Below are positions 29,912-42,514 of a stretch of 64,000 nucleotides of DNA, in pieces. Source of the stretch: an uncultured Oxalobacteraceae bacterium (GTDB taxonomy: Bacteria > Pseudomonadota > Gammaproteobacteria > Burkholderiales > Burkholderiaceae); assembly GCA_946480015.1 (NCBI GenBank), contig CAMLIL010000008.1, positions 30,186 through 94,185 on the forward strand. Reading direction: 5' to 3'. The notes under the pieces are model-generated. The model was not told where the DNA came from, did no database searches, and saw only the letters and a list, made by a program, of their open reading frames with translations. The translations under genes and the position numbers were made by a program. Position 1 is the stretch's first letter. Every line of letters begins with the position of its first letter.

Positions 29912-30835
29912 CTAGCCAGTGATCGCCCGCAGTTCGGCCTCGATCTGATGGCAGCTCGCCCTGAGCACGTCGACGAAACTGGCCACCACCGAAGCCTCCG
30001 GCCGAAATTGCGGGCGCACAAGATTAACGGAATACGGTATCGAATGGCTGAAGCGGCGGATGGTCAGGCCGAGCCCGGCGTACGACAGCGCGCTCAGCGG
30101 ATTGACGATGGCGATCCCCACGCCCAGACTGACCATCTCGCACACCGCACCGGCGCTGACCGTTTCCACCACCATGCGGCGCGCGATGCCCAGTTCATTG
30201 AACAGACTGTCGACCTCCTGGCGGTAGGGATCCCCGGCCGCCAGATACACAAAGTTCTGCCCCTCGAAATCCTGCGGCGTCAATACCTTGTCTTCACGCT
30301 GGCACAGTTCGTGGCCGGCCGGCAGGACGCAGACCACATCCAGCGTGAGCAGGGTCTCGATGACGGTACCGCGCGGCGCCGCCTGCTCCTCGGTCAGTCC
30401 CAGATGGAAGCGCTGGGACGCGAGCGACTCCTGCAATAGCGAGCTTTCTTGCGGCGTGATCTTGAGGCTGACGCCGGGGAAACGCTGACGGAATTGCTGA
30501 CAGGCGCGCGGCAACAGCGCGTGCGAGAAAGCAGGCAGGCAGGCCACCGACACCTGTCCCTGGCTGAAATGGCGGATCGCATCGGCCGCCCGGGCGATCG
30601 TGTCGAGGCCGACATAGGCGCGCTGCACTTCATCGAACAGCATCACCGCCTGCTCGGTGGGCGCCAGCTTGCCGTTGACGCGTTTGAACAGACACAGCTG
30701 GGTTACCTGCTCAAACCGGCTCAGTTCGCGACTGATGGTCGGCTGCGACGTGTGCAGCAATTGCGCCGCCGCCGTGGCACTCCCGGTCGTCATCACGGCC
30801 CAAAACACTTCTACATGCCGAAAGCTGAATTTCAT
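29912..30835 (-). CDS. lysR: LysR-family regulator closely resembling E. coli LysR
   Basis: 307 residues from ATG 30835. The HTH (about 18-37) contains QLLHTSQPTISRELSRFE. Unlike generic LysR-type proteins, it follows E. coli LysR itself along its length: VACLPAFSHALLP, ITPQESSLLQESLASQR, VVCVLPAGHEL, VETVSAGAVCEMVSLGVG and VNPLSALSYA all have direct counterparts. LysR activates lysA in response to diaminopimelate. No lysA is adjacent. Instead the gene is divergent from the hydrazine-type biosynthetic operon starting at 30972, whose expected precursor is lysine. I infer that it controls that operon through a lysine-pathway signal; the identity to LysR is from memory, not alignment. Confidence 0.8.
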   Translation of the reverse strand: MKFSFRHVEVFWAVMTTGSATAAAQLLHTSQPTISRELSRFEQVTQLCLFKRVNGKLAPTEQAVMLFDEVQRAYVGLDTIARAADAIRHFSQGQVSVACLPAFSHALLPRACQQFRQRFPGVSLKITPQESSLLQESLASQRFHLGLTEEQAAPRGTVIETLLTLDVVCVLPAGHELCQREDKVLTPQDFEGQNFVYLAAGDPYRQEVDSLFNELGIARRMVVETVSAGAVCEMVSLGVGIAIVNPLSALSYAGLGLTIRRFSHSIPYSVNLVRPQFRPEASVVASFVDVLRASCHQIEAELRAITG

Positions 30836-30900
30836 CGTCACCCTTACCAAGCCAGGACCGCATCATATCAGAAATGAATGACCTACCGAAATATTGATAT

Positions 30901-30929
30901 TTTTGAAAATATAAAATTTTAACTATAAT
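30901..30929 (+). promoter_or_regulatory. AT-rich promoter of the biosynthetic operon
   Basis: TATAAT at 30924-30929 has a weak -35 (TTTTGA at 30901) 17 bp upstream. The region 30870-30935 is strikingly AT-rich and holds the imperfect dyad ATATTTTTGAAAATAT, which fits a LysR-type T-N11-A site. It lies between the divergent starts at 30835 and 30972. A weak -35 is expected at an activator-dependent promoter. Confidence 0.55.
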
Positions 30930-30971
30930 TTCCCTCAATCAATACCTAACGGACCAGGACAGGGAAATCCA

Positions 30972-32240
30972 ATGAAACAAGCTTACGTAGTGTTTGAGCC
31001 CATCAATCATGTGATGACGGTCATTGAAGCGGCCAAGCGCCGCGGCATGCACGTGGTCGTCATCCGCACGCTGCCCCTGACCCTGGCCGCGCCGTATGCG
31101 AGTGCCACATCGGCCATCGACACCGATATCGTCATCGAGAACTGGGCCGATCACGCCGCCATCGTGCAGCTGGCGAGCGAGGCCTGCGCCGGTTTCGCCG
31201 TGGCGGGCAGTTACGCCGCCGCCGAAATTACCCTGATGCCGGAAGCGCTGTTCCGCCAGCGCCATGGCCTGGCCGGACTGTCCCCCGAACAGGTTGCCAT
31301 GCTCCTCAACAAGGAGCAGGTACGCGGCCGCCTTGCGGCGTCCGGCTTGACCGCGCTGGCCACCATCAGCCAGGAAGAGGCCTTGGCGATGACGGAGTGG
31401 CCGGCAGGGAAAACCTATTATTTCAAACCCGTCAATGGCGCCGGCAGCGCCCTGGTCAGCAAGCTCACCAGCCTCGATCAATTGCACGCCGCGATTGCCA
31501 ACTGGAGCAAGAAGCCGGAAGTGAGCCTGGACCTGCTGCGCCACTACATCGAACAGAACAACCGCTTTTATCTGGAACAGGCGGCCGAAGGCGAACTGAT
31601 GTCGGTCGAAGGCTTCGCCGTCGATGGCCACTATTACGAATTGGGCTTGAGTTCGCGCACCGTGCTCGAGCGTGACGAAGCCATCGAAATGGGCCTGTCG
31701 TTTCCGTACCAGCATCCACAACACGCGGCCATCGTTGCCAAGGTGCGCCAGATTCACCTGGCGCTGGGCGTGCACAATGGACCGACCCATACAGAAGTGA
31801 TCTATACATACGATGGCGAGGTCGAGCTGGTGGAACTCAATATCCGCTTCGTGGGCGCGGACGTGATACTTGCCATTAACGCCGCCATGGGCGTGCGCAT
31901 CGAAGATGAACTGCTGCGGGTGACGCTGGGCCAAGCCCCCCGGCTCGCGCATGCTGCCAGCGGCGTGTCGGTATTGCAGCAGGTAATGCCGCCCCCGGGA
32001 CTGGACACGTTTCACAGCATCGAGTTTCCGCCCGAGCACGTCGTCTTCAGCAAGATCACCGCACGGCCAGGCGTCCAGCTGGCATCGACCAGTTTTCAGA
32101 TGGACCAGATCGCCTCCTTCATCGTGCGCGGCGACGACTACGCGCAAGCCATGCAGCGCGCCAGGTATGTGCGCGAAAACACCCTGGTCAACGGCGAGCT
32201 GCTGGCCAATAACGTCAATAACGTCGTGGTGCTGCGCTAA
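30972..32240 (+). CDS. ATP-grasp carboxylate-amine ligase 1
   Basis: 422 residues, first gene of the operon, with AGGGA upstream of ATG 30972. An N-terminal Rossmann-like pre-ATP-grasp domain (about 1-110) is followed by an ATP-grasp fold. The nucleotide-binding lysine region is TYYFKPVNGAGS (about 150-161), and the metal-binding strand VELVELNIRF (about 285-294) supplies Glu and Asn. Such enzymes activate a carboxylate as acyl phosphate and join it to an amine, as in L-amino-acid ligases and several natural-product pathways. It differs clearly from the second ATP-grasp protein, so the two probably make different bonds. The substrate is unknown. Confidence 0.85.
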   Translation: MKQAYVVFEPINHVMTVIEAAKRRGMHVVVIRTLPLTLAAPYASATSAIDTDIVIENWADHAAIVQLASEACAGFAVAGSYAAAEITLMPEALFRQRHGLAGLSPEQVAMLLNKEQVRGRLAASGLTALATISQEEALAMTEWPAGKTYYFKPVNGAGSALVSKLTSLDQLHAAIANWSKKPEVSLDLLRHYIEQNNRFYLEQAAEGELMSVEGFAVDGHYYELGLSSRTVLERDEAIEMGLSFPYQHPQHAAIVAKVRQIHLALGVHNGPTHTEVIYTYDGEVELVELNIRFVGADVILAINAAMGVRIEDELLRVTLGQAPRLAHAASGVSVLQQVMPPPGLDTFHSIEFPPEHVVFSKITARPGVQLASTSFQMDQIASFIVRGDDYAQAMQRARYVRENTLVNGELLANNVNNVVVLR

Positions 32241-32271
32241 AGCGCCCCACCCTCATCCTCCAATTTGCGCC

Positions 32272-33534
32272 ATGAACCAGACTACCAACTACGCCATCAT
32301 CGTCGATCCGCTGGCCGGCGGCCGTTTCCTGCCCGATGAATTCGCCGAACGCGGGATTGCCTGCATCGCCGTGCTCAGCGGCCCGGTCCCGGCCGACTTT
32401 GCCGCGTCCTTCCACGCCGAAAAATTCGCCGCGGTGTTCGCTTTCGATGGCGATGCCGACGCGCTCGCCGCGCGCCTGGCCGCGTTCAAACCCATGTGCG
32501 TCATGCTTGGCCTGGAAACCGGTGTCGAACTGATGGACCGGCTGGCGCACCGCCTTGGCCTGCCCGGCAATGACCCGCTCACCAGCGCCCAGCGCTGCGA
32601 CAAGTTCACCATGCAGGAAACGCTGCACGCCAAGGGCTTGCGCGCCATTCCCCAGGCCCGCGTCAACGATCTCGGCGCCGCGCGCACCTGGCTGCTGGCG
32701 CGCCAAAGCTGGCCGGTGATCGTCAAGCCGACCAATTCGGCCGGTTCCGACGGCGTGACCCTGTGCCACAGCATGGAGCAGGCCCTGGACGCCGTGGCCG
32801 CGCTGCTGGGCGCAGTCAATCTGCTGGGACAGGTCAACGAGTTCGTTCTGTTGCAACACTATCTAGCGGGCCGCGAGTGGGTGGTCGACACGGTCTCGTG
32901 CAACGGCCGCCACGTGGTCACCAACGTCACGCGCTACCTGAAGCAGGTCACCGATTGCGGCAAAGTGATCTATCGCCACTGCGAGTACCTGTCGCCGGCC
33001 GACGAGGAGCACCGCGAACTGATCGCCTACGCGCTCGGCGTCAACGATGCCCTGGGTATCCGGTTCGGCTCGGCCCACCACGAAATCATCCTCACGGCGC
33101 ACGGCCCCACGCTGGTGGAAGTGAACCCGCGCATGCATGGCGCCGACGCCGCGCGCGCCTTGCGCTGGTGCTTTCCGGTCACGCAGATCGATCTGTCGGT
33201 CGACGCCTATATCGATACCGGCTCGTTCGCAGCCAAGGCCGAGCGGGAATTCAAGTTCGGCAATTTCATGATTGCCCACTACCTCATTTCCAGCCAGCCG
33301 GGCACGGTCAGCGCGGTGGCCGCCAGCGCGGCGCTGCAGGGGATCGCGTCCTTCAAGCTGGGCCATTTGCCGGCGCTCGGCAAGCACGTCAACAAGACCA
33401 TTTCGCTGACCACCTCGCCAGGCTACATCTGGCTGGTCAACGCCGACCAGGCGGCGCTGTGGCGCGACCAGCAGCAGCTCATCGCGATGGAAGACCGCGG
33501 CGAACTGTACGCCCTGTCGCCGCAGGCTCACTAA
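32272..33534 (+). CDS. ATP-grasp carboxylate-amine ligase 2
   Basis: 420 residues from ATG 32272, 31 bp after ligase 1. It has the BacD/carbamoyl-phosphate-synthase-like arrangement: pre-ATP-grasp domain, then the lysine strand WPVIVKPTNSAGSDGV (about 142-157) with a Gly/Ser loop. The metal-binding strand is TLVEVNPRMHG (about 281-291), with Glu, Asn and Arg. A C-terminal lid resembling other dipeptide-forming ligases follows. It would form a peptide or amide bond with ATP. Having two such ligases and no NRPS suggests a small dipeptide-like product. The HlyD gene begins 14 bp downstream. Confidence 0.85.
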   Translation: MNQTTNYAIIVDPLAGGRFLPDEFAERGIACIAVLSGPVPADFAASFHAEKFAAVFAFDGDADALAARLAAFKPMCVMLGLETGVELMDRLAHRLGLPGNDPLTSAQRCDKFTMQETLHAKGLRAIPQARVNDLGAARTWLLARQSWPVIVKPTNSAGSDGVTLCHSMEQALDAVAALLGAVNLLGQVNEFVLLQHYLAGREWVVDTVSCNGRHVVTNVTRYLKQVTDCGKVIYRHCEYLSPADEEHRELIAYALGVNDALGIRFGSAHHEIILTAHGPTLVEVNPRMHGADAARALRWCFPVTQIDLSVDAYIDTGSFAAKAEREFKFGNFMIAHYLISSQPGTVSAVAASAALQGIASFKLGHLPALGKHVNKTISLTTSPGYIWLVNADQAALWRDQQQLIAMEDRGELYALSPQAH

Positions 33535-33548
33535 ATCCGCGCCACGCC

Positions 33549-34697
33549 ATGCAACCCATGCTCAAGATCAGCTTTGCCGGCCTGTTCGGCGCCGCCCTGC
33601 TCGCCACCGTCTATGGCGTGGCCAGCCGCGATGCGGACGTGATCACGCTCGACAATGCCTATGTCAGCGGGCGCGTCCTCAAGATTTCGGCCAGCACCGA
33701 CGGTACCGTGGAAACCTATGCGGCCCGGCGCGCGGCCTATGTCGCCAAGGGCGAGCGGCTGTTCAATATCGGCGACGTCGACAACGCGGCCAGGCTCAAG
33801 GAATACCGCGAGTTGCTGCGCATCGCCATCGACGACGAAGTCCAGGCCTGCCGCGAGGTGGCCAGCGCCCGCACCTCGCTGAACCGCGCGCACACCAATG
33901 CCGGCTATGTCGATGCCAGCCTGCAGCGTGTCAAGTCGCTCGCACAGGTCGGCATGATGACCCGCGAAATGCTGGAAAAGCGCCAGCAGGAGGTGGCCAT
34001 GAGTACCCTCGACACCACCGCTGCCGAGCAGGAACTGGAGAAGTCGGCCGACAAGAACCGTTTGCCGGTATTCCAGCGTCCCAAGGTGCAGCACGCCGTG
34101 GCGCGCCTGCAAGCGGCGTTCCAGCAGGCCTACTCGGCCGACGTGCTGGCCCCGGCCGATGGCTATATCTATGAACTGCTGACCTATAGCGGCCAGTACG
34201 TCAAGAAAGGCGACAATCTGCTGGTGTTCATTCCCAGGGAAGACCAGGTCATCGAAGCCAACGTGCTCGAATCGGACATCGCTTCGCTCAGCGCCGGCAA
34301 TGCCGTCACCGTGGTGCCGGATGTCGGCGGCGGCAAGCAAACCTATTCGGGCGTGATCGCCTCGATCGTTCCCTCGGTCGCGGCCACGTTCTCGCAACTG
34401 CCGCGCAACAACCTCGACTCCAACTGGATCAAGACCTCGCAACGCATTCCGGTCCTGATCACCCTGGCGGCGCCGGCCGGCGACACGCCGCCGCTGCCGC
34501 TGGGGTCCTCGGTGAAGGTGATCGTCAACACCCGGCAGGCCAGGCGTGCGCCCCCGGTGCGCGCCCCGTCCACCTCAACGCAGGCCGGTGTGCAGCCGGG
34601 CACCGAACAGCAGCTGCGGCAGCGCTTCGACAGCTATCTGAAACAGGTGATGGCCGGGTACCCGCACGCCGGCGCGCAGTCCGGGAGCTGCCGGTGA
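33549..34697 (+). CDS. HlyD/EmrA-type membrane fusion protein
   Basis: 382 residues. A single N-terminal membrane helix (about 5-24) is followed by a first lipoyl half (VSGRVLKISASTDGTVETY). A helical hairpin (about 85-185) comes next, then the second lipoyl half (ADVLAPADGYIYELLTYSGQYVKKGD, spanning about 195-225) and a beta-barrel. It bridges an inner-membrane exporter towards the outer membrane. Its GTG-started neighbour, an EmrB-like MFS protein, overlaps its stop, so the two form an EmrAB-type pump. Within the operon this pair is the obvious exporter or self-resistance system for the product. Confidence 0.85.
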   Translation: MQPMLKISFAGLFGAALLATVYGVASRDADVITLDNAYVSGRVLKISASTDGTVETYAARRAAYVAKGERLFNIGDVDNAARLKEYRELLRIAIDDEVQACREVASARTSLNRAHTNAGYVDASLQRVKSLAQVGMMTREMLEKRQQEVAMSTLDTTAAEQELEKSADKNRLPVFQRPKVQHAVARLQAAFQQAYSADVLAPADGYIYELLTYSGQYVKKGDNLLVFIPREDQVIEANVLESDIASLSAGNAVTVVPDVGGGKQTYSGVIASIVPSVAATFSQLPRNNLDSNWIKTSQRIPVLITLAAPAGDTPPLPLGSSVKVIVNTRQARRAPPVRAPSTSTQAGVQPGTEQQLRQRFDSYLKQVMAGYPHAGAQSGSCR

Positions 34698-36154
34698 ACT
34701 GGCTGAAGCACCGGGCGCTGGCCGCGTTTGCGCTCTACCTGATCATCTTCACGCAGATGCTCGACACCTCGGTGGCCAACCTGGCCTTGTCGAATATCGC
34801 CTCGGACCTGATGATGGACGTGTATCACGCCTCGTGGATCGTCACCTCGTTCGGCACCGGAGTGGTGATCGCCTTTCCGCTCGGGTCGATCTGGAGCAAG
34901 CGCGCCTCCAGCGAGTTCGTCCTGGCCGTGGGCTGCCTGGTGTTCGCCCTGGCCTCGCTCGGCTGCGGCCTGACCAGCGACCCGGCCCACTTCATCCTGT
35001 TGCGCCTGCTGCAAGGAATCGGCTCGGGCATTGCCGTGATCGCCTCGTTTCCCATCATGATCGCGCTTCTGGGCACGGGCAACGCCACCTTTGCCATCGC
35101 CCTGTGCACCAGTGCCATTTCGCTGGCGCCGGTCAGCGGTCCGATCGTCGGCGCCTGGGTGACGGCGCATTTCGGCTGGCACATGCTGTTCCTGATGAAC
35201 GTGCCGCTGACCGCCGTGGCCATGTTCCTGCTGCTGCCGACCTTCAGCGCGCCGGCGCCTGCCCAGCCCGAACGGATAGGGCCCCGCCTGTCGACCCTGG
35301 CCCTGTTCGGGACCTGCGTGGCGCTGCTGCAGTATGCGCTCGATTTTGGCGAACAGTACGGCTGGTTTCACAGTCCGGTCATCGTGAGCGCGGTGGGAGC
35401 CGCCATCGTGGTGGGCAGCGCCTTCTTTTGGCTCAACGGCATCGCCAAATACCAGATCTTCAACCTCGCCGTGTTCGCCAACCCGCTGTACGCCGGCACG
35501 ACCACGGTGCTGGTGATCGGCAATGGCCTGATCTTCGCGTCGCTGGTGTTCCTGCCACTGTGGTTCCGGCTCGATCGCCACATGCCTTTGCTGGAAGCGG
35601 GCGTGATCGTCTCGCTGGGCAGCGGCGTGTCGGCTGTGGCCACGCCGTTTATCGGCAAGTACTTTCCGCGCCAGTATTTGCCCTATGCCGCTCTGCTCAG
35701 CCTGCTGCTGACGGCGATCTCGTTTCTGATGATGAGCCGCTTCACGGTCGACAGCCCGATGTCCAGCCTGGTGGCCGCGCGCCTGGTGGCCGGCTGCGGC
35801 ATGGCGATCTTTTCGACGCCCCTGATCACCATGTCGCTGTCGAAGCTGGCGCCGTCCGATCTGGTGAACGGCAACACCGTTTCGATCGTGCTGCGCGTGC
35901 TGGTGGCCAACATCATGGTCGCCGTCAGCTTCGCCCAGTACCGCCATTTGAGCGACGCGGCCCAGGCCCAGTTCAGCGCCAGCGCCGACCGCCTGTCGTA
36001 CCTGGCCACGACGGCACTGAGCGCTCCGGCCGCCAATTACCTGACCGGCCTGTTTCATACCAGCGCGCTGTCGAGCATTTTCCTGGCAACGGGCGCCTTC
36101 TTCGCCGTCAGCCTGATGGCACTGCTGCCGTTCAGTACCCGCATCAAAACCTAG
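34694..36154 (+). CDS. MFS drug exporter of the DHA2/EmrB type (14 helices)
   Basis: 486 residues, beginning with GTG at 34694 that overlaps the HlyD stop (GTGA). About 14 hydrophobic helices are visible. The DHA2 signature LDTSVANLALSNIA is in helix 1, RLLQGIGSGIAVIASFP marks helix 4, and the antiporter-type SLAPVSGPIVGAWV marks helix 5. The family expels small, often amphipathic molecules using the proton gradient, with an EmrA-like partner in Gram-negatives. It most likely secretes the operon's product. The acyltransferase gene starts 23 bp downstream. Confidence 0.88.
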   Translation: MNWLKHRALAAFALYLIIFTQMLDTSVANLALSNIASDLMMDVYHASWIVTSFGTGVVIAFPLGSIWSKRASSEFVLAVGCLVFALASLGCGLTSDPAHFILLRLLQGIGSGIAVIASFPIMIALLGTGNATFAIALCTSAISLAPVSGPIVGAWVTAHFGWHMLFLMNVPLTAVAMFLLLPTFSAPAPAQPERIGPRLSTLALFGTCVALLQYALDFGEQYGWFHSPVIVSAVGAAIVVGSAFFWLNGIAKYQIFNLAVFANPLYAGTTTVLVIGNGLIFASLVFLPLWFRLDRHMPLLEAGVIVSLGSGVSAVATPFIGKYFPRQYLPYAALLSLLLTAISFLMMSRFTVDSPMSSLVAARLVAGCGMAIFSTPLITMSLSKLAPSDLVNGNTVSIVLRVLVANIMVAVSFAQYRHLSDAAQAQFSASADRLSYLATTALSAPAANYLTGLFHTSALSSIFLATGAFFAVSLMALLPFSTRIKT

Positions 36155-36177
36155 ACCTGTTCCTTTACGAGAAGCTT

Positions 36178-36633
36178 ATGCATACCATTACCGTGCGCCA
36201 GGCCATCCTGGCCGATCTTGAAGACTTGACTGCGCTGTTCGACCGTTATCGCCAGTTCTATGGCAAAGCAGGCGACCTGGAGGGCGCACGGCGCTTCCTG
36301 CTGGAGCGCTTCGAGCATGGCCAATCGATCCTGCTGATCGCCCACGCCAACGGCGAGCCGGCCGGCTTTACCCAGCTCTACCCCAGCTTTTCCTCGCTGT
36401 CGATGGCGCGCATCTTCGTGCTCAACGACCTGTTCGTGGCGGCCACGGCGCGCCGCCAGGGTACCGCCTCGCAGCTGCTGAGCGCCGCCACCGCGCTGGC
36501 GCGCCAGCTGGGCGCGGTGGCGCTCACGCTGTCGACCGCGCTCGACAACCACGCCGCGCAAGCGCTGTACGAAGGCTCCGGCTGGCAGCGCGACACCGAT
36601 TTTTTCACCTACGACCTGCGGCTGGCGCCATGA
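36178..36633 (+). CDS. GNAT N-acyltransferase 1
   Basis: 151 residues forming a complete GNAT domain. Motif A is FVLNDLFVAATARRQGTASQLL (about 80-101), with the acyl-CoA pyrophosphate loop RRQGTA; motif B is YEGSGWQRDTDFFTYDL. It transfers an acyl group from acyl-CoA to an amine. Inside this operon the acceptor could be a hydrazine or alpha-amino group of an intermediate, or the finished compound for self-protection. It overlaps the next GNAT gene by 4 bp (ATGA), implying coordinated production. Confidence 0.85.
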   Translation: MHTITVRQAILADLEDLTALFDRYRQFYGKAGDLEGARRFLLERFEHGQSILLIAHANGEPAGFTQLYPSFSSLSMARIFVLNDLFVAATARRQGTASQLLSAATALARQLGAVALTLSTALDNHAAQALYEGSGWQRDTDFFTYDLRLAP

Positions 36634-37142
36634 AGCACGCCGTGGCGATCCGCGCGCTGGCCGAGGCCGACGTACCGGCGTTTTTCGCCCTGCTCCAGGC
36701 CAAAGCCGCGTTCGATGGCTGCGCCGAGTCGCTGCTGGCCACCGAAGACAGCGTGCGGGCGGCGCTGTTCGGCCCATCGCCCATGACGCGCGCGCTGGTG
36801 GCCATGGCCGATGGCCAACTGGTCGGCATGGCGACCTACTACATGATTTTCTCGACCTTCATCATGCAGCCCGGCCTGTGGCTCGATGATCTGTACCTCG
36901 ACCCGGCCCGGCGCGGCCAAGGCATCGGGCGCGCCATGATGGCGCAACTGTGCGCCATCGCCAGCGAACACGGCTGCGCCCGCGTCGACTGGACTGTCGC
37001 CAGCCGGAACCAGGACGGCCAGCGCTTTTACGCCCGTCTCGGGGCGACCATCTCGGACCGGCTGCAATTGTGCCGCCTGGGCACCGCGGCCATCGATCGC
37101 CTCGCCATCGAACATGCCGCCTCCGGCACCACCTCGCAATAG
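36630..37142 (+). CDS. GNAT N-acyltransferase 2
   Basis: 170 residues. The GNAT core contains LWLDDLYLDPARRGQGIGRAM (about 88-108), with the CoA loop RRGQGIG, and a motif B with WTVASRNQDGQRFYARLGA. It has only limited similarity to GNAT 1 and is not a recent tandem duplicate, so a different acceptor is likely. It starts within the stop codon of GNAT 1. The N-hydroxylase follows 39 bp downstream. Confidence 0.85.
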   Translation: MKHAVAIRALAEADVPAFFALLQAKAAFDGCAESLLATEDSVRAALFGPSPMTRALVAMADGQLVGMATYYMIFSTFIMQPGLWLDDLYLDPARRGQGIGRAMMAQLCAIASEHGCARVDWTVASRNQDGQRFYARLGATISDRLQLCRLGTAAIDRLAIEHAASGTTSQ

Positions 37143-37181
37143 CACGACTCACGATTTTCGACTGACGACCTTTACATCAAT

Positions 37182-38558
37182 ATGACAACAGCAAAAAATA
37201 CCATACAAGGCAATCCAGTGTACGACCTGATTGGAATTGGCTTCGGCCCCTCCAATCTCGCGCTGGCGTTGGCGATCGATGAGCAATGCGACGAAGCGGA
37301 ACTGAGCGCCCTGTTCCTGGAACAAAAGCCCGAATTCCAGTGGCATCCGAACATGCTCATCCCCGGCACCGACATGCAGATTTCGTTTCTGAAGGATCTG
37401 GTCACACTGCGCAATCCAAGCAGCCCCTACACCTTCCTCAATTACCTCAAGAGCGTGGGACGGCTGTCGACCTTCTCCAATCTGCGCAGCTTTTATCCAT
37501 CGCGCCTCGAGTTTCATGGCTATCTGGCATGGGTCGCTCAGCATTTGCAGCGCTATGCCCGCTACAGCCAGCAGGTGACCCGCATCAGCGCCTGCGGCAG
37601 CGCGCCGCACACGCTGTTCGAAGTGCTCAGCCAGGATTTGCTCACTGGTAAGGTCGAGCGCTTCTTCGCCCGTAACCTGGTCGTCGCGCCGGGCGGCACC
37701 CCTACCGTGCCGTTTCCGCTCACCATCGCCGCCGACAGCCAGCGTGCCTGGCACAGTTCCGCATACCTGAAAAAAATCGCCCATTTCAAGACCAACACCT
37801 GCGCGCCCTACCATTTCGCCGTCATCGGCAAGGGACAGAGCGCGGCCGAAATCATCTTCGATCTGCACGCCACCTTCCCGAACGCCAAAATCAGCTGCAT
37901 TTACCGCGGGTTCGGACTCAAACCGTCCGATGACAGCGAGTTCGTCAATGAAATCTTCGACGCCAACTTTGTCGATTTCGTCCACGCGACCCCGTCCGGG
38001 ATGCAAAGCGACCTGATGACGCAGCACTACGATACCAATTATTCGGTCGTCGACGCAGACCTGATCCGGCGCCTGTACGCCATCCACTACGCCGAGAAAG
38101 TCAGCGGCCGCGCGCGCCTGCACTTCCACAACCTGTCCACCGTCACCCAGGTGCTGGAAGCGGGCGACGCGGTCCGCATCGCCTACAGCGACATGTCCGG
38201 TGCCGGGCCGCGGACCCTTGAGGTTGACGCCGCCGTGCTCGCCACCGGCTACACCTACCCGAATCCGCCCAAGGTGCTCAGCGCACTGGGCGAGTTCATT
38301 TGCCTGGACGCCGCCAGCGGAAAGGCCGTGGTCGACCGCCATTACCGCATGCACACCGACGCGCGCCTGGCGGCCGGCATCTACGTGCAGGGCTGCAACG
38401 AGTCGACCCATGGCCTGAGCGACACCCTGTTGTCGATCCTGCCGATCCGCAGCGAGGAGATCCTGACCAACCTGCTGACTTACCGCATGCTCCAGGCGAG
38501 CAAGGGACTGGCTCACGCTGCGCCACTGGTGCAGGACGAGCTTGGATGCGTCGAGTGA
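37182..38558 (+). CDS. Flavin-dependent lysine/ornithine-type N-hydroxylase
   Basis: 458 residues of the SidA/PvdA/IucD class. The FAD motif GIGFGPSN is at 18-25, followed by FQWHPNMLIPGTDMQISFLK and DLVTLRNPSSPYTF, the signature of amino-acid N-hydroxylases. The NADPH motif GKGQSA is at 216-221, and ATGY and the C-terminal HGLSDTLLSILPIRSEEI are typical. It would oxidise the side-chain amine of lysine or ornithine to a hydroxylamine. No NRPS or siderophore synthetase is nearby. The next two genes are instead the partners of lysine N6-hydroxylases in hydrazine-forming pathways, so N6-hydroxylysine is the favoured product. The stop overlaps the next gene. Confidence 0.92.
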   Translation: MTTAKNTIQGNPVYDLIGIGFGPSNLALALAIDEQCDEAELSALFLEQKPEFQWHPNMLIPGTDMQISFLKDLVTLRNPSSPYTFLNYLKSVGRLSTFSNLRSFYPSRLEFHGYLAWVAQHLQRYARYSQQVTRISACGSAPHTLFEVLSQDLLTGKVERFFARNLVVAPGGTPTVPFPLTIAADSQRAWHSSAYLKKIAHFKTNTCAPYHFAVIGKGQSAAEIIFDLHATFPNAKISCIYRGFGLKPSDDSEFVNEIFDANFVDFVHATPSGMQSDLMTQHYDTNYSVVDADLIRRLYAIHYAEKVSGRARLHFHNLSTVTQVLEAGDAVRIAYSDMSGAGPRTLEVDAAVLATGYTYPNPPKVLSALGEFICLDAASGKAVVDRHYRMHTDARLAAGIYVQGCNESTHGLSDTLLSILPIRSEEILTNLLTYRMLQASKGLAHAAPLVQDELGCVE

Positions 38559-39637
38559 GCCAGCAGTACGATGTGATCGTGGTCGGAGGCGGCGTGATCG
38601 GCAGCGCCATCCTGCACCGGCTCAGTGAGCGTTTCGGCGCCCGCGCGCTGCTGGTCGAGCAAGCCCGCATGGGCCAGGGCTCGACCGGCTGGTCCGGCGG
38701 CGTGCTGCGCTGCTACCACCCCGACCCGCTGCTGGCCGACATGGCCTGCGACGGCGATGCCTATTACCGCCAGTTCGAGCGCCACACCGGCGTGGCGCAA
38801 GCCATCACCCGCAGCGGGTTTGTGCACGCGATCTACCCTGACCAGGCCGACCAGGCCCAGCGCGAGGTGAAGCGCCTGTCCGGCCGCATCGCGATCGAAT
38901 GGCTGCCCCGGCACGAGGCGCGCGCCCGCTTCCCCGGCATGCACTGGGATGACCTGGCCGGGGCCGTGCTGGAACCGGACGCCGGCCACATGGACCCGCA
39001 CGCCGTCACGGCCGCCTGGATCGCGTCCGCGCGCGCGGCCGGCAGCATCGCCATGGAAGGCGTGCGCTTTGCCGGCCTGCTCAGCGAAACAGGCCGCACC
39101 GTCGGCATCCAGACCAACCTGGGCGCCCTGTATGCGCCGTGCGTGGTGATGTGCCTGGGGGCGTGGAGCGCGAAAGCGGCCCGCGCCGCCCACTTGCCCT
39201 TGCCCGAAGCCGTGCACGCCAAGGCGATCCAGCTCAACGTGTTTCGCGCGCGCGCCGGCATCGGCCCGCATCCGGCCTTCATCGACCCCGGCGCGCAGCT
39301 GTACGGCCGTGCCGAGGGCGAGCGCAGCCTGTATCTGGGCGCCCCGGTGCCGCAATGGGACATCGACCCGGACGCGCCGGCCGAGGTGGAACTGGCCCAT
39401 GTGGCCATGACGCAGCAGCAAGGCACGCGCCGCTTCCCATGGCTGGCCGATGCCACCCCGGCCGGCGGCTTTCGCCGCTTCGACGGCTATACGGCCGACG
39501 GCCGCGGCCTCGTCCAGCCCGCACCGGAGACGCCCGGGCTGTTCTGGGCGACCGGATTTTGCGGCGGCGGCTTCAAGCTGGCCCCGGCGATTGCAGCAAA
39601 AATCAGCACCTTCATTCAAACAACGACAGCAACCTGA
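38546..39637 (+). CDS. DAO-family FAD-dependent oxidoreductase (hydrazine-pathway type)
   Basis: 363 residues from ATG 38546 (13-bp overlap with the hydroxylase); a GTG at 38555 overlapping its stop (GTGA) is the alternative. The N-terminal FAD motif is VIVVGGGVIGSAI, and the C-terminal FAD-binding signature FWATGFCGGGFKLAPAI is typical of the D-amino-acid/glycine oxidase fold. In the known hydrazine cassette a homologous flavoprotein oxidises N6-(carboxymethylamino)lysine and releases hydrazinoacetic acid plus aminoadipate semialdehyde. Position and fold fit that role. A sarcosine- or proline-oxidase-like activity cannot be excluded by sequence alone. Confidence 0.88.
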   Translation: MRRVSQQYDVIVVGGGVIGSAILHRLSERFGARALLVEQARMGQGSTGWSGGVLRCYHPDPLLADMACDGDAYYRQFERHTGVAQAITRSGFVHAIYPDQADQAQREVKRLSGRIAIEWLPRHEARARFPGMHWDDLAGAVLEPDAGHMDPHAVTAAWIASARAAGSIAMEGVRFAGLLSETGRTVGIQTNLGALYAPCVVMCLGAWSAKAARAAHLPLPEAVHAKAIQLNVFRARAGIGPHPAFIDPGAQLYGRAEGERSLYLGAPVPQWDIDPDAPAEVELAHVAMTQQQGTRRFPWLADATPAGGFRRFDGYTADGRGLVQPAPETPGLFWATGFCGGGFKLAPAIAAKISTFIQTTTAT

Positions 39638-39648
39638 AAAAGCACCCA

Positions 39649-41676
39649 ATGAATATCATCCGCACTTCCGACCGCGCTACCGCCACCGTCTACGGCCTGC
39701 AATGCCAGCCAGCGGTCGAACCCCTTTTCGATGGCAAGCTGCCGTTCGGCACCATGCACTGTGTCGTCAAGCCCGGCATCACCTCGACCATTCACAATCA
39801 CCATGAGTACGAGTGCTTTTTCATCACCCAGGGCAGCGGCACGCTGACGATCGGCGCCGACAGCGCAACGGTACGCGCCGGCGACGTCATCCGCATCCCG
39901 CCGTTCGCCGATCACACCTTGCACAACGACGGGCAGGACGAACTGCACTTCCTGACCTTCTGGTGGGAAGACTTGAACGCCCTGCTCGCGCCGGCCGCCG
40001 GCGCCGCCGGCAGCGCGCGCGCGCTGATATTCTCGACCCCGCCCACGCCCAACGGCGACCTGCACCTCGGCCACCTGTCGGGCCCCTATACCGGCGCCGA
40101 CATCTATCGCCGTTTCCTGGAACTGCAAGGCGCGACCGCATTCCACGTCACCGGCCGCGACGACAACCAGAGCTACGTGCCGCGCAAGGCGCTCGACCAG
40201 GGCCGCACGCCGGAAGCGCTGGCCGACGACTATTCCGCCCGCATCCAGCAGACGCTCGAGCGCAACGCCATCCGCGTCGATCACTACGGCTATCCAAAAG
40301 CCTCGCCTTACCATAACGACCTGACCCGGCGCGTGGTCCGGGAACTGTTCGACAAGGGCATGATTTACGAGCGCGACGTCGACGCGCTGTTCTGCGCCAG
40401 CACCGGCAACTACCTGTACGAAGCGCACGTCCGTGGCCTGTGCCCGCATTGCCAGGTCGAGTCCGACGGCAATGCCTGCGAACAGTGCGGGCGTCCCAAC
40501 GATGTCACCGACCTGATCGAGCCGCACAGCAAGTACGCCAACGGCGGCACCACCAAACGCCAGGTGCGCAAACTGTACTTCCGCATGAGCGCCTTCGCCG
40601 ACCAGCTGCGCGCCTACCACCGCGAAGTGACGATGCCGGCCCATCTGGCGGCGCTGTGCCACCGCATGCTCGAGGCCGGCCTGCCGGACATCTGCGTCTC
40701 GCATTTCTCCGACTGGGGTATTCCGGTGCCGGTGGCCGGCTACGATGACCAGCGCATCTATGTGTGGTTCGAAATGGCGGCCGGCTATCTGGCCGCTGCC
40801 CAGGAAACGGCGGAAAAGGCCGGGCTGTGCGCCCATGCGCAGGACGGCTGGAAGCAGTTCTTCGCGCACGAACACACCAAGGTCGTGCACTTCTTCGGCT
40901 TCGACAACGGCTACTTCCACGCCGTGCTGTTCCCGGCCGTGTACATGGCGCTCGACTGGGGAATCACGCCGCCGGCGGCGTTCGTCGTCAACGAACTGCT
41001 CAATCTGGAAGGGCTGAAGTTCTCCACCAGCCGCGGCCACCTGATCTGGGGGCGCGACCTGCTCGACCAGGTGCCGTCGGACTACGTCCGCTACTACCTG
41101 TCGTACGTGCGTCCGGAAACCAGCAAGACCAACTTCACCCTCACCGAATTCATGGACGTGGTCAACGAGCAGCTGGTGGGGACGTGGCAGAACTGGCTGG
41201 GTAATCTGGTCGACAAAACCTGCAGCGCGTTCGGCGCCAAGATACCGGCACCGGGCGCGTGGGCGCAGGAGCACCGGGCGTATTTCGAACTGGTCGACGG
41301 CATGCTCAAACAGGCCAGGACGGCCTATCAGGCAGAGAGCTTTTCGCCGCAGCGCATCTGCCACCTGGCCAGCGAACTGGTGCGCGAAGCCAAACGCTTC
41401 TCGGCCTCCCAGACCCACTACGCCGGCAGCGCCGCCACCTACGACCTGCTGCGCACCGGCATCGCGCTCGAACTGCTGGCGGCAAAGACCCTGGCGGTGA
41501 TCATCCAGCCGATCATGCCGGCATTTTCCGACAGCCTGTGGCAGATGCTCGAAGGCCAGGCAAGCATGCAATGGCCCGCCACGCCCACCTTCGTCGGCGA
41601 CGGCCGCGTGCTGCAGGCGCCGGCGCAGCCGTTCTTTTCCAGCGTGCCGGAGACAGTGCTTGAACTCTGGAAGTAA
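39649..41676 (+). CDS. Cupin-methionyl-tRNA-synthetase fusion (hydrazine synthetase type)
   Basis: 675 residues. Residues about 20-110 are a cupin with metal-ligand candidates H49, H51, H52, E55 and H89 (HNHHEYE...H). Residues about 125-675 resemble MetRS: HIGH-like HLGH at 139-142, a four-Cys zinc knuckle (C265, C268, C277, C280), and KMSKS-like KFSTS at 457-461. A C-terminal helical region lacks an obvious EMAP tRNA-binding domain. True MetRS never carries an N-terminal cupin. This fusion is the signature of enzymes that couple glycine with N6-hydroxylysine to make an N-N bond. The ATG at 39649 lies 11 bp after the flavoenzyme stop. Confidence 0.93.
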   Translation: MNIIRTSDRATATVYGLQCQPAVEPLFDGKLPFGTMHCVVKPGITSTIHNHHEYECFFITQGSGTLTIGADSATVRAGDVIRIPPFADHTLHNDGQDELHFLTFWWEDLNALLAPAAGAAGSARALIFSTPPTPNGDLHLGHLSGPYTGADIYRRFLELQGATAFHVTGRDDNQSYVPRKALDQGRTPEALADDYSARIQQTLERNAIRVDHYGYPKASPYHNDLTRRVVRELFDKGMIYERDVDALFCASTGNYLYEAHVRGLCPHCQVESDGNACEQCGRPNDVTDLIEPHSKYANGGTTKRQVRKLYFRMSAFADQLRAYHREVTMPAHLAALCHRMLEAGLPDICVSHFSDWGIPVPVAGYDDQRIYVWFEMAAGYLAAAQETAEKAGLCAHAQDGWKQFFAHEHTKVVHFFGFDNGYFHAVLFPAVYMALDWGITPPAAFVVNELLNLEGLKFSTSRGHLIWGRDLLDQVPSDYVRYYLSYVRPETSKTNFTLTEFMDVVNEQLVGTWQNWLGNLVDKTCSAFGAKIPAPGAWAQEHRAYFELVDGMLKQARTAYQAESFSPQRICHLASELVREAKRFSASQTHYAGSAATYDLLRTGIALELLAAKTLAVIIQPIMPAFSDSLWQMLEGQASMQWPATPTFVGDGRVLQAPAQPFFSSVPETVLELWK

Positions 41677-42514
41677 GCCGATTGTGGTGGGGGTCGCCGG
41701 CCCCCTGTCCGGCCCGCGCGTGGCCCACGCTCCACTGCTGCTGCGCGCCACCCGGCACCTGCGCGCGCACGGCCTCGCCTGTCAGATGGAGGATGACGGC
41801 GCCGCGCCGGACCAGGCAGTCGCGGTCGCGCGGCGTTTCATCGCACGCGGGGTGGATGCCGTGGTGGGCCACTTCAACAGCGCGTGTGCCGAGGCGGTGC
41901 TGCCCTTGTACCGCCAGCACGGCATCACGCTGTTGCTGCCGGCCTCGTCGCAGACCGGCCTGGCGGCCGGCGGCGGAGCTTACCGTCTCTGTTCCACGGA
42001 TCTGGCCCAGGCCAGCCTGATGGCAGCCAGAATAGGTCAGTTGGGCCTGTCGCATGCGGCCGTCGACATCGCCATCGACGACAGTCCCTACGCCCAGCGC
42101 GTGCTGGGCAGCGGCGCACTGGCGGAGATGGCCGGGATGGCTGGCGTGGTTGGGCTGCGTTCGCCCCCGGCGCGATCCGTCGGGCTGCGCCTGGTGCTGG
42201 CCACTTGCGCCAATGCCCTGGCAGCCAACCGCGCACTGGTCGACAGCGACTGGAATGGCGCCGTCATCTATGCCGACGATGCCCATGTCGAGGAGTTTTT
42301 CGAGCGGGCAGGCACGCGCACAGGACTGTGCCAGCAGGTCGTGGGCTCGCATCTGGATTACGGCACGCTGGTCGAACAAGCCTGCGCCCTGATCGCACGC
42401 TGGCGCGACCAGGCCGCTGGCTGTACGCTGAGCCAGTGGCTGTCCGCGTCCGGGCTGTTTTCCCATCAGGGGGACGCGCTCGACGCGCACTGGATGTTAT
42501 GCGAGCTGAAGTAA
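41660..42514 (+). CDS. LivK-like ligand-binding protein without signal peptide
   Basis: 284 residues from a TTG start at 41660 that overlaps the hydrazine-synthetase gene by 17 bp; GTG 41684 is an alternative. The fold is that of periplasmic Leu/Ile/Val-binding proteins (Peripla_BP_6), with VVGVAGPLSGP, VDAVVGHFNSACAEAVLPLY and ITLLLPASSQTGL. It lacks any signal peptide and is shorter than the usual 350-380 residues. No permease or ATPase is nearby. Cytoplasmic relatives of this fold, such as AmiC, work as sensors of small amides. A sensor or carrier of a pathway intermediate is possible, but no partner regulator is seen other than the divergent LysR. Confidence 0.7.
   Translation: MNSGSKPIVVGVAGPLSGPRVAHAPLLLRATRHLRAHGLACQMEDDGAAPDQAVAVARRFIARGVDAVVGHFNSACAEAVLPLYRQHGITLLLPASSQTGLAAGGGAYRLCSTDLAQASLMAARIGQLGLSHAAVDIAIDDSPYAQRVLGSGALAEMAGMAGVVGLRSPPARSVGLRLVLATCANALAANRALVDSDWNGAVIYADDAHVEEFFERAGTRTGLCQQVVGSHLDYGTLVEQACALIARWRDQAAGCTLSQWLSASGLFSHQGDALDAHWMLCELK

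What the first reader, a model, noticed from the sequence alone, without database searches (positions are those of the whole stretch)
37182..41676. Complete hydrazine (N-N bond) forming cassette in a Gram-negative genome
Three consecutive genes encode a lysine/ornithine-type N-hydroxylase, a DAO-family flavoenzyme and a cupin-MetRS fusion. This is the combination used in the actinomycete pathways for s56-p1 and triacsin (Spb38/39/40-type enzymes), where N6-hydroxylysine is coupled to glycine and the resulting hydrazine is cleaved to hydrazinoacetic acid. The fusion is highly specific to that chemistry. I know of no characterised product from Oxalobacteraceae, and the accessory genes here (two ATP-grasp ligases, two GNATs, an EmrAB-like pump) differ from those clusters.
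Basis: partly seen in the sequence, partly recalled or inferred. Interest (0 to 1): 0.93.

Follow-up and report, generated by a model that had tools for sequence, protein, structure and literature searches.

The report
Hydrazine-making gene cluster, Por type
A bacterial genome carries a ten-gene set that very probably builds a reactive nitrogen-nitrogen (hydrazine) amino acid and ties it into a small exported peptide; the chemistry belongs to a known family, but to a different branch, with a different predicted product, from the one first proposed.

Summary
At 37182-41676 lie an intact Lys/Orn-type N-hydroxylase, a DAO-fold flavoenzyme and a cupin-MetRS fusion with the zinc-ligand spacing of hydrazine synthetases. 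None of the three core enzymes groups with the actinomycete hydrazinoacetate set; hydroxylase and synthetase fall on the Pseudomonas orientalis Por9/Por11 side (the DAO too, weakly). The hydroxylase is PvdA-like. The DAO has the sarcosine-oxidase-type Lys, as have 8 of 8 classed DAOs in the Por-side synthetase set, whereas 37 of 37 in the hydrazinoacetate-side set have Arg there. The better prediction is an omega-hydrazino amino acid with glycine as sacrificial nitrogen donor, then peptide ligation and export. The binding-protein gene is near the cassette in 9 of 10 Por-side and 0 of 38 hydrazinoacetate-side loci. Gram-negative synthetases with ATP-grasp, GNAT, binding-protein and efflux neighbours were described in 2010. 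So: a new member of a known kind, with an unexplained cytoplasmic binding protein as the most interesting loose end.

The parts
29912..30850 (-). LysR-family regulator, divergent from the operon
   Evidence: PF03466 + PF00126; NCBIfam PRK11013 436.8 bits, cut-off 288
30972..32240 (+). ATP-grasp ligase 1 (422 aa), predicted L-amino-acid-ligase fold
   Evidence: PF13535; model pLDDT 93; six best Foldseek hits are BacD/YwfE, the B. licheniformis ligase and RizA; 25 proteins at E<=1e-3 among the 7998 candidates scored, query included
32272..33534 (+). ATP-grasp ligase 2 (420 aa), PRK07206 / dapdiamide-synthase-like
   Evidence: PRK07206 334 bits above cut-off 302; DdaF 196 bits, below cut-off 840
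33549..34697 (+). EmrA/HlyD-like periplasmic adaptor
   Evidence: PF13437, PF16576; EmrA/EmrK subfamily 143 bits, below cut-off 391
34694..36154 (+). EmrB/DHA2-like MFS exporter
   Evidence: PF07690; efflux_EmrB 175 bits, below cut-off 230
36178..36633 (+). GNAT acyltransferase 1 (151 aa)
   Evidence: PF00583; relatives in the synthetase loci L007 (110 bits), L029 (81) and L001 (60)
36630..37142 (+). GNAT acyltransferase 2 (170 aa)
   Evidence: PF00583 69 bits
37182..38558 (+). flavin N-hydroxylase, PvdA/Por9-like (ornithine type by motif and tree)
   Evidence: PF13434 347 bits; best solved relative PvdA 3s5w, 355 bits; motif HGLSDTLLSILP; tree
38555..39637 (+). DAO-fold FAD oxidase, Lys type (R-x-x-H ... 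GFCGGGFK)
   Evidence: PF01266; residue comparison; tree
39649..41676 (+). cupin-MetRS fusion, hydrazine synthetase
   Evidence: PF07883 + PF09334; zinc-ligand pattern; tree; pocket comparison
41660..42514 (+). Atu2422/LivJ-like binding-protein fold without room for a signal peptide, TTG start overlapping the synthetase by 17 bases
   Evidence: PF13458; 3ip5 47 bits with shared GHFNS motif; model pLDDT 94, best Foldseek hit 3ip5; relative in 12 of 80 synthetase loci

Best explanation
A ten-gene operon (30972-42514) that makes and exports a small peptide carrying a hydrazine. Steps: (1) the PvdA-like hydroxylase makes N5-hydroxy-L-ornithine (inferred); (2) the MetRS-like half activates a small amino acid, most likely glycine, with ATP and esterifies it to the hydroxylamine, and the zinc cupin rearranges the ester to an N-N bond (mechanism reported for the family, inferred here); (3) the DAO oxidises the glycine-side C-N bond, releasing glyoxylate and L-2-amino-5-hydrazinopentanoate, so glycine serves as nitrogen donor only (inferred from residues and family chemistry); (4) a GNAT caps the reactive hydrazine, and the two ATP-grasp ligases join it to one or two amino acids (inferred); (5) the EmrAB-like pump exports it (inferred); (6) the cytoplasmic binding-protein fold holds or senses the hydrazino amino acid (speculative). 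Shown here: gene content, intact frames, domain and residue conservation, phylogenetic placement and gene linkage. No chemistry is shown.
For: Domains and intact frames. Zinc-ligand pattern. Synthetase tree: window in a 25-row set (SH-aLRT 95) with Por11; hydrazinoacetate synthetases in a separate 38-row set (100). Por11 is reported to use glycine (PMC11705231), and the window's amino-acid pocket equals Por11's at 14 of 15 mapped positions. Hydroxylase: nearest solved relative PvdA, motif HGLSD, on the Por9/PvdA side of a 100/100 split. DAO: Lys at the SoxB Lys348 position in the window and in 8 of 8 classed DAOs of the por-side synthetase set, Arg there in 37 of 37 of the hydrazinoacetate-side set; an Arg in R-x-x-H register in the window and all 13 Lys-type loci. 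Arg52/Tyr55/Lys348 hold the substrate carboxylate in sarcosine oxidases (PMC12582975, passages). The review says Apy10 cleaves the C-alpha side, leaving an omega-hydrazine, and prints for it an accession one number after Por9's. Ligase fold of ATP-grasp 1.
Against: Regiochemistry is inferred: I had no Apy10 sequence and could not confirm that the L018 DAO is the protein the review means. The window DAO is 27% identical to the L018 one against 24% to the S. noursei one (114 against 38 bits), and its placement beside the por DAOs is weak (91/61). The Arg equivalence to SoxB Arg52 needs the alignment shifted by one column, and Tyr55 is His. The glycine pocket hardly discriminates: three hydrazinoacetate-type synthetases also match at 13 of 15 positions. 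Ornithine, as opposed to 2,4-diaminobutyrate or a diamine, is not established; L007, the closest hydroxylase, has HGITD. A relative of ligase 2 (33%) lies in L078, a hydrazinoacetate-side locus. The ATP-grasp 1 and pump module also occurs with NRPS genes and no synthetase in the 29 kb read in Massilia forsythiae, so the ligase may not act on the hydrazine.
Confidence: 0.58

Rival explanations
1. One reading: the cassette makes hydrazinoacetic acid, the DAO cutting the side-chain C-N bond as Spb39 does; the ligases then couple hydrazinoacetate to amino acids.
For: Same three families and the same fusion as Spb38/39/40; glycine pocket plausible; a ligase 2 relative lies in the hydrazinoacetate-side locus L078; the azaserine cluster also has an ATP-grasp gene, azsJ, though its authors doubt a role (PMC10445470, passages).
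Against: All three enzymes fall outside the hydrazinoacetate clades; the DAO has Lys where 37 of 37 classed DAOs of that synthetase set have Arg; the hydroxylase has the HGLSDTLLS motif, which the patterns used did not find in the hydrazinoacetate-side hydroxylases looked at. No acyl-CoA-dehydrogenase, AMP-ligase or Ntn-hydrolase family of the kind required in the hydrazone-cluster survey was found in the ten genes.
Confidence: 0.22
2. Siderophore or metallophore pathway: a PvdA-type hydroxylase feeding a hydroxamate product, with the cupin-MetRS as a peptide ligase.
For: The hydroxylase is as close to hydroxylases not linked to a synthetase that I take for PvdA (354.8 bits in P. orientalis, 369.5 bits in another Pseudomonas genome) as to most synthetase-linked ones. 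The 2010 survey also considered a siderophore (PMC2922099).
Against: No NRPS, TonB receptor or IucA/IucC-type synthetase among the ten genes (the rest of the window was not annotated); zinc-ligand pattern and linkage to synthetase and DAO recur across phyla; in the tree the window pairs with a synthetase-linked Legionellaceae protein (97/96).
Confidence: 0.06
3. The hydroxylase acts on 2,4-diaminobutyrate or a diamine such as putrescine and the product is a shorter or decarboxylated hydrazine; cluster logic otherwise as in the best explanation.
For: The review reports Por11 also accepting N4-hydroxy-diaminobutyrate and other family members accepting N-hydroxy diamines (PMC11705231).
Against: Nearest solved relative and motif are ornithine type.
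Confidence: 0.14

Closest known systems
por cluster of Pseudomonas orientalis (Por9, DAO, Por11)
   Same: Same gene order hydroxylase-DAO-synthetase-binding protein; same DAO type; synthetase 40%, hydroxylase 38%, binding protein 31%, DAO 27% identical
   Different: por has further genes, shared with Xenorhabdus and in part P. entomophila loci, that are not among the window's ten; no relative of ATP-grasp 1 or 2 was found in the 22-kb L018 locus
Spb38/39/40, triacsin, azaserine, N-nitroglycine and Dob hydrazinoacetate machinery
   Same: Same three protein families and cupin-MetRS fusion
   Different: Different clades for all three enzymes and different DAO signature; identities to the S. noursei hydroxylase, DAO and synthetase are 27, 24 and 35%
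Vibrio penaeicida cluster (L010)
   Same: Hydroxylase-synthetase-binding protein-DAO plus a PRK07206-like ATP-grasp ligase 39% identical to ligase 2
   Different: Gene order differs; no relative of ATP-grasp 1 beyond a 21-bit hit to that same gene
Massilia forsythiae plasmid NRPS cluster (NZ_CP051686.1)
   Same: ATP-grasp 1 relative (40% over 95%) next to HlyD and MFS genes
   Different: NRPS-based, no cupin-MetRS in the 29 kb read
L-amino acid ligases BacD/YwfE, RizA and dapdiamide synthase DdaF
   Same: Predicted fold (ligase 1) and family (ligase 2)
   Different: 16-18% identity in the six best Foldseek alignments; substrates unknown

Membership tests
Cupin/MetRS hydrazine synthetases | Zinc-cupin ligands fused or adjacent to a MetRS-like domain | tested here: met
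   PF07883 + PF09334 in one chain; H49, H51, E55, H89 invariant in A1, with His where RHS1 has Asp63
Cupin/MetRS hydrazine synthetases | MetRS part is a paralogue distinct from housekeeping MetRS | tested here: met
   417-652 bits to paralogues, next hits at most 184 bits, in 12 genomes; tree
Cupin/MetRS hydrazine synthetases | Linked N-hydroxylase gene | tested here: met
   37182-38558
Cupin/MetRS hydrazine synthetases | Forms an N-N bond | not testable with these tools
   needs assay
Spb/Tri/Aza hydrazinoacetate pathway | Synthetase, hydroxylase and DAO group with the characterised set | tested here: not met
   each lies outside the clade holding S. noursei, S. fragilis and N. ninae proteins
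Spb/Tri/Aza hydrazinoacetate pathway | DAO signature with Arg in NGSGYR-like motif | tested here: not met
   window has R-C-Y-H and GFCGGGFK; Arg in 37 of 37 of the hydrazinoacetate-side set
Por-type cassette | PvdA/Por9-side hydroxylase and Por11-side synthetase | tested here: met
Por-type cassette | DAO groups with the por DAOs | tested here: inconclusive
   signature matches; tree placement 91/61
Por-type cassette | Binding-protein gene beside the cassette | tested here: met
   41660-42514; 9 of 10 por-side loci
ABC-transporter substrate-binding proteins | Signal peptide and partner permease/ATPase genes | tested here: not met
   residue 8 aligns with residue 3 of the 3ip5 chain and the frame allows no earlier start; no ABC permease or ATPase among the ten genes
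L-amino acid ligases (ATP-grasp) | Fold of BacD/RizA type | tested here: met
   top six Foldseek hits for ligase 1; ligase 2 by family model only
L-amino acid ligases (ATP-grasp) | Ligates two amino acids | not testable with these tools
   needs assay

The most novel reading that the evidence does not exclude
The binding-protein gene is a working part of the hydrazine pathway: a former amino-acid transport receptor that lost its signal peptide and became a cytoplasmic escort which holds the toxic omega-hydrazino amino acid between DAO and GNAT or ligase (or meters it), a role for this fold that I recall from no other biosynthetic pathway; and the operon as a whole delivers an omega-hydrazino amino acid as a peptide antimetabolite.
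Probability: 0.25. Interest if true: 0.72.

Novelty: new member of a known kind. Interest (0 to 1): 0.48.

Why it matters
If the reading is right, sequence alone can tell which side of the hydrazine a pathway keeps (hydrazinoacetate or omega-hydrazino amino acid) from a few DAO residues. That would make product prediction possible for many uncharacterised clusters. The Por-type clusters would be a source of hydrazino analogues of ornithine or diaminobutyrate, plausible inhibitors of PLP enzymes, packaged as peptides. The recurring binding protein without a signal peptide is a testable unknown in an otherwise well studied chemistry.

Tried and rejected
Hydrazinoacetate reading: rejected as first choice after trees and DAO residues. 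Siderophore reading: considered because the hydroxylase is PvdA-like; rejected on gene content and linkage. Negamycin-type hydrazide: one search listed a preprint on a heme-enzyme route; I saw only its listing, and dropped the idea. Exclusive link of ATP-grasp 1 to hydrazine clusters: not upheld, because of the Massilia forsythiae plasmid. In 399 genomes of the family of G001 the only genome with a cupin-MetRS hit (E<=1e-90) and the only one with an ATP-grasp 1 hit (E<=1e-30) was the same one, G001, the Ramlibacter MAG that seeded the draw, there on a separate 4.2-kb contig beside an MFS-like frame; it is the seed and a MAG, so this is weak evidence. Binding-protein specificity: profile A2 also hits proteins that I take for ordinary LivJ-type receptors, mostly over the first half only; in 369 genomes of the class of G002 only the seed G002 exceeded 110 bits. 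Defining DAO types by the Lys/Arg residue itself (13 and 39 loci) is circular as evidence, so the report uses sets taken from the synthetase tree. Host taxonomy: not established; a distant DNA search of one window gene in plasmids gave mixed genera. Megablast of 30500-41700 found only two short matches, each 1% of the query, in plasmids. Promoter/terminator scan gave no more than shuffles. Caps left ATP-grasp 2, the DAO and the hydroxylase without a search of the large protein database.
Full report
What is there. The window has 64.5% G+C. From 30972 to 42514 ten genes run on the + strand with gaps of at most 39 bases; four of the nine junctions overlap. In order: ATP-grasp 1, ATP-grasp 2, HlyD/EmrA adaptor, EmrB/MFS pump, GNAT 1, GNAT 2, N-hydroxylase, DAO, cupin-MetRS, binding-protein fold. 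A LysR regulator lies divergently upstream (29912-30850). The ten frames are intact. The rest of the window was not annotated.

Is the cupin-MetRS a hydrazine synthetase? By sequence, yes. Both domains score above the Pfam cut-offs. H49, H51, E55 and H89 are invariant in 26 aligned relatives and have the spacing of the RHS1 zinc ligands Asp63, His65, Glu69 and His103 (PMC8664883, section 10 read), with His for Asp63; the RHS1 structure 5uqp aligns over this stretch. In 12 genomes reached through loci the protein scores 417-652 bits to the paralogue, and the next hits, which I read as housekeeping MetRS, reach at most 184 bits. A genome-contig scan found 547 pattern matches, 374 of which encode a relative, and kept the best 80.

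Which branch? The 80 loci include organisms named in papers: Pseudomonas orientalis DSM 17489 (por, L018), Streptomyces noursei (N-nitroglycine, L055), S. fragilis (azaserine, L059) and Nocardia ninae NBRC 108245 (Dob, L054). I match these to the papers by organism and gene content, not by accession. The hydroxylase tree (careful, 37 chosen rows) puts the window next to a synthetase-linked Legionellaceae protein (97/96) on the PvdA/Por9 side of a 100/100 branch, opposite the hydrazinoacetate-type hydroxylases. Its nearest solved relative is PvdA, an ornithine hydroxylase, at 355 bits, ahead of the lysine enzyme MbtG at 328. In the DAO tree (careful, 38 rows, with Arg-type rows thinned and L004 left out beforehand) the Arg-type rows form a 100/100 clade without the window; the window joins the por DAOs with only 91/61.

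DAO signature. Aligned to E. coli SolA, the DAOs split by one residue: Lys (13 loci and the window) or Arg (39 loci) at the position of sarcosine oxidase Lys348. Because that split defines itself, the fair test uses sets from the synthetase tree: of the ten por-side loci 8 have a classed DAO and 8 of 8 are Lys type; of the 38 hydrazinoacetate-side loci 37 have one and 37 of 37 are Arg type; the remaining Lys-type loci are L001, L003, L010, L011 and L029, the remaining Arg-type loci L044 and L053. L004 was left out because its hit is a SolA-like gene on the other strand, away from the synthetase. Upstream, the Lys type has R-x-x-H in 13 of 13 loci, while the Arg type has motifs such as HFPR, HFPV or DIPR. 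Arg52, Tyr55 and Lys348 anchor the substrate carboxyl in SoxB-family enzymes (PMC12582975, passages seen). So the Lys-type DAOs look able to hold the glycine carboxylate and oxidise the adjacent C-N bond; Tyr55 is not kept. The review PMC11705231 (section 15 read) says Apy10 cleaves the C-alpha side to leave an omega-hydrazine, unlike Spb39, and prints for it an accession one number after Por9's. It says Por9 is specific for 'L-28' (N5-hydroxyornithine in its numbering; I read ornithine) and that Por11 joins glycine to N5-hydroxyornithine or N4-hydroxydiaminobutyrate. The window's synthetase pocket equals Por11's at 14 of 15 mapped positions, but three hydrazinoacetate-type synthetases match at 13 of 15, so the pocket discriminates little. 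Hence the prediction, not proof, of an omega-hydrazino amino acid.

The tenth gene. It is a type I periplasmic-binding-protein fold (model pLDDT 93.9, best Foldseek hit Atu2422, 3ip5) that keeps the GHFNS motif of that amino-acid receptor, but its first strand starts at residue 9 and no earlier start codon is open, leaving no room for a signal peptide. A profile finds a relative at over 200 bits in 12 of 80 synthetase loci: 9 of 10 por-side loci, 0 of 38 hydrazinoacetate-side loci, and L001, L010 and L011 elsewhere. By DAO type, 11 of 13 Lys-type loci have it (not L003, L029) and 0 of 39 Arg-type (Fisher 1.3e-9, which ignores relatedness). L028 has it without a detected DAO. In L007 it lies on the opposite strand about 3 kb from the hydroxylase. 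In 149 Pseudomonas genomes, the seed P. orientalis included, 2 have a full-length member above 300 bits and 10 a partial match of 108-127 bits; the next listed hit has 105 bits. Of those 10, 8 were given loci and 8 of 8 carry hydroxylase and DAO beside it; 7 of the 10 were fetched at 18 kb and 7 of 7 carry separate cupin and MetRS genes with a Lys-type DAO, though with R-x-x-D/E-like upstream motifs where seen. [quoted passage not shown] So the linkage as such is not new. What I add is its tie to one synthetase side and DAO type and the missing signal peptide in the window protein.

Ligases. ATP-grasp 1 is predicted with the L-amino acid ligase fold. Its family looks small: 25 proteins at E<=1e-3 among 7998 candidates scored, query included, of which 22 score 290 bits or more. 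A relative lies beside HlyD and MFS genes in an NRPS cluster on a Massilia forsythiae plasmid with no synthetase in the stretch read. So the ligase-and-pump part may be a module reused with different building blocks. ATP-grasp 2 has a relative (39%) in the Vibrio penaeicida hydrazine cluster and another (33%) in the hydrazinoacetate-side locus L078.

Known or new? Gram-negative hydrazine synthetases are in print. A 2026 Nature paper mined 129 hydrazone-type clusters in Actinobacteria and Proteobacteria, requiring among others PF02770, PF00501 and PF03417, which were not found in the ten genes here (PMC13061610, passages and section 26 read). A search for names of omega-hydrazino ornithine and diaminobutyrate found nothing relevant by title beyond the review, and the listing of a search joining hydrazine, binding-protein, cupin and MetRS terms showed no paper on the binding protein's role. 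The primary papers of Matsuda and colleagues cited by the review did not turn up in the library searches made, so they may say more.

Noticed in passing
L105-L111 (unnamed Pseudomonas genomes): A further cassette type: separate cupin and MetRS genes, Lys-type DAO, binding protein and hydroxylase, followed in L105 by a frame that by eye resembles a cysteine-synthase-like PLP enzyme. Ten of 149 Pseudomonas genomes show the matching binding-protein hit.
   Followed up: partly
   Followed up: partly
P0014, P0019 (protein search): Cupin-MetRS fusions labelled Acinetobacter calcoaceticus/baumannii complex group near the window's branch (45-46% identity); their gene neighbourhoods were not looked at.
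   Followed up: no
L082 14001-15275: Massilia forsythiae plasmid: ATP-grasp 1 relative with HlyD/MFS genes and two NRPS genes, a possible relative of the export-and-ligation half of the window operon.
   Followed up: partly
L114 and L006 (Ramlibacter MAG): The MAG with a por-side cassette beside an NRPS-like frame also has an ATP-grasp 1 relative followed by an MFS-like frame on a separate short contig; binning error cannot be excluded.
   Followed up: partly
window 29912-30850: The divergent regulator matches the PRK11013 LysR model far above cut-off (437 against 288 bits); I recall that model as LysR proper, a diamino-acid-responsive regulator, which would suit a basic amino acid pathway.
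   Followed up: no
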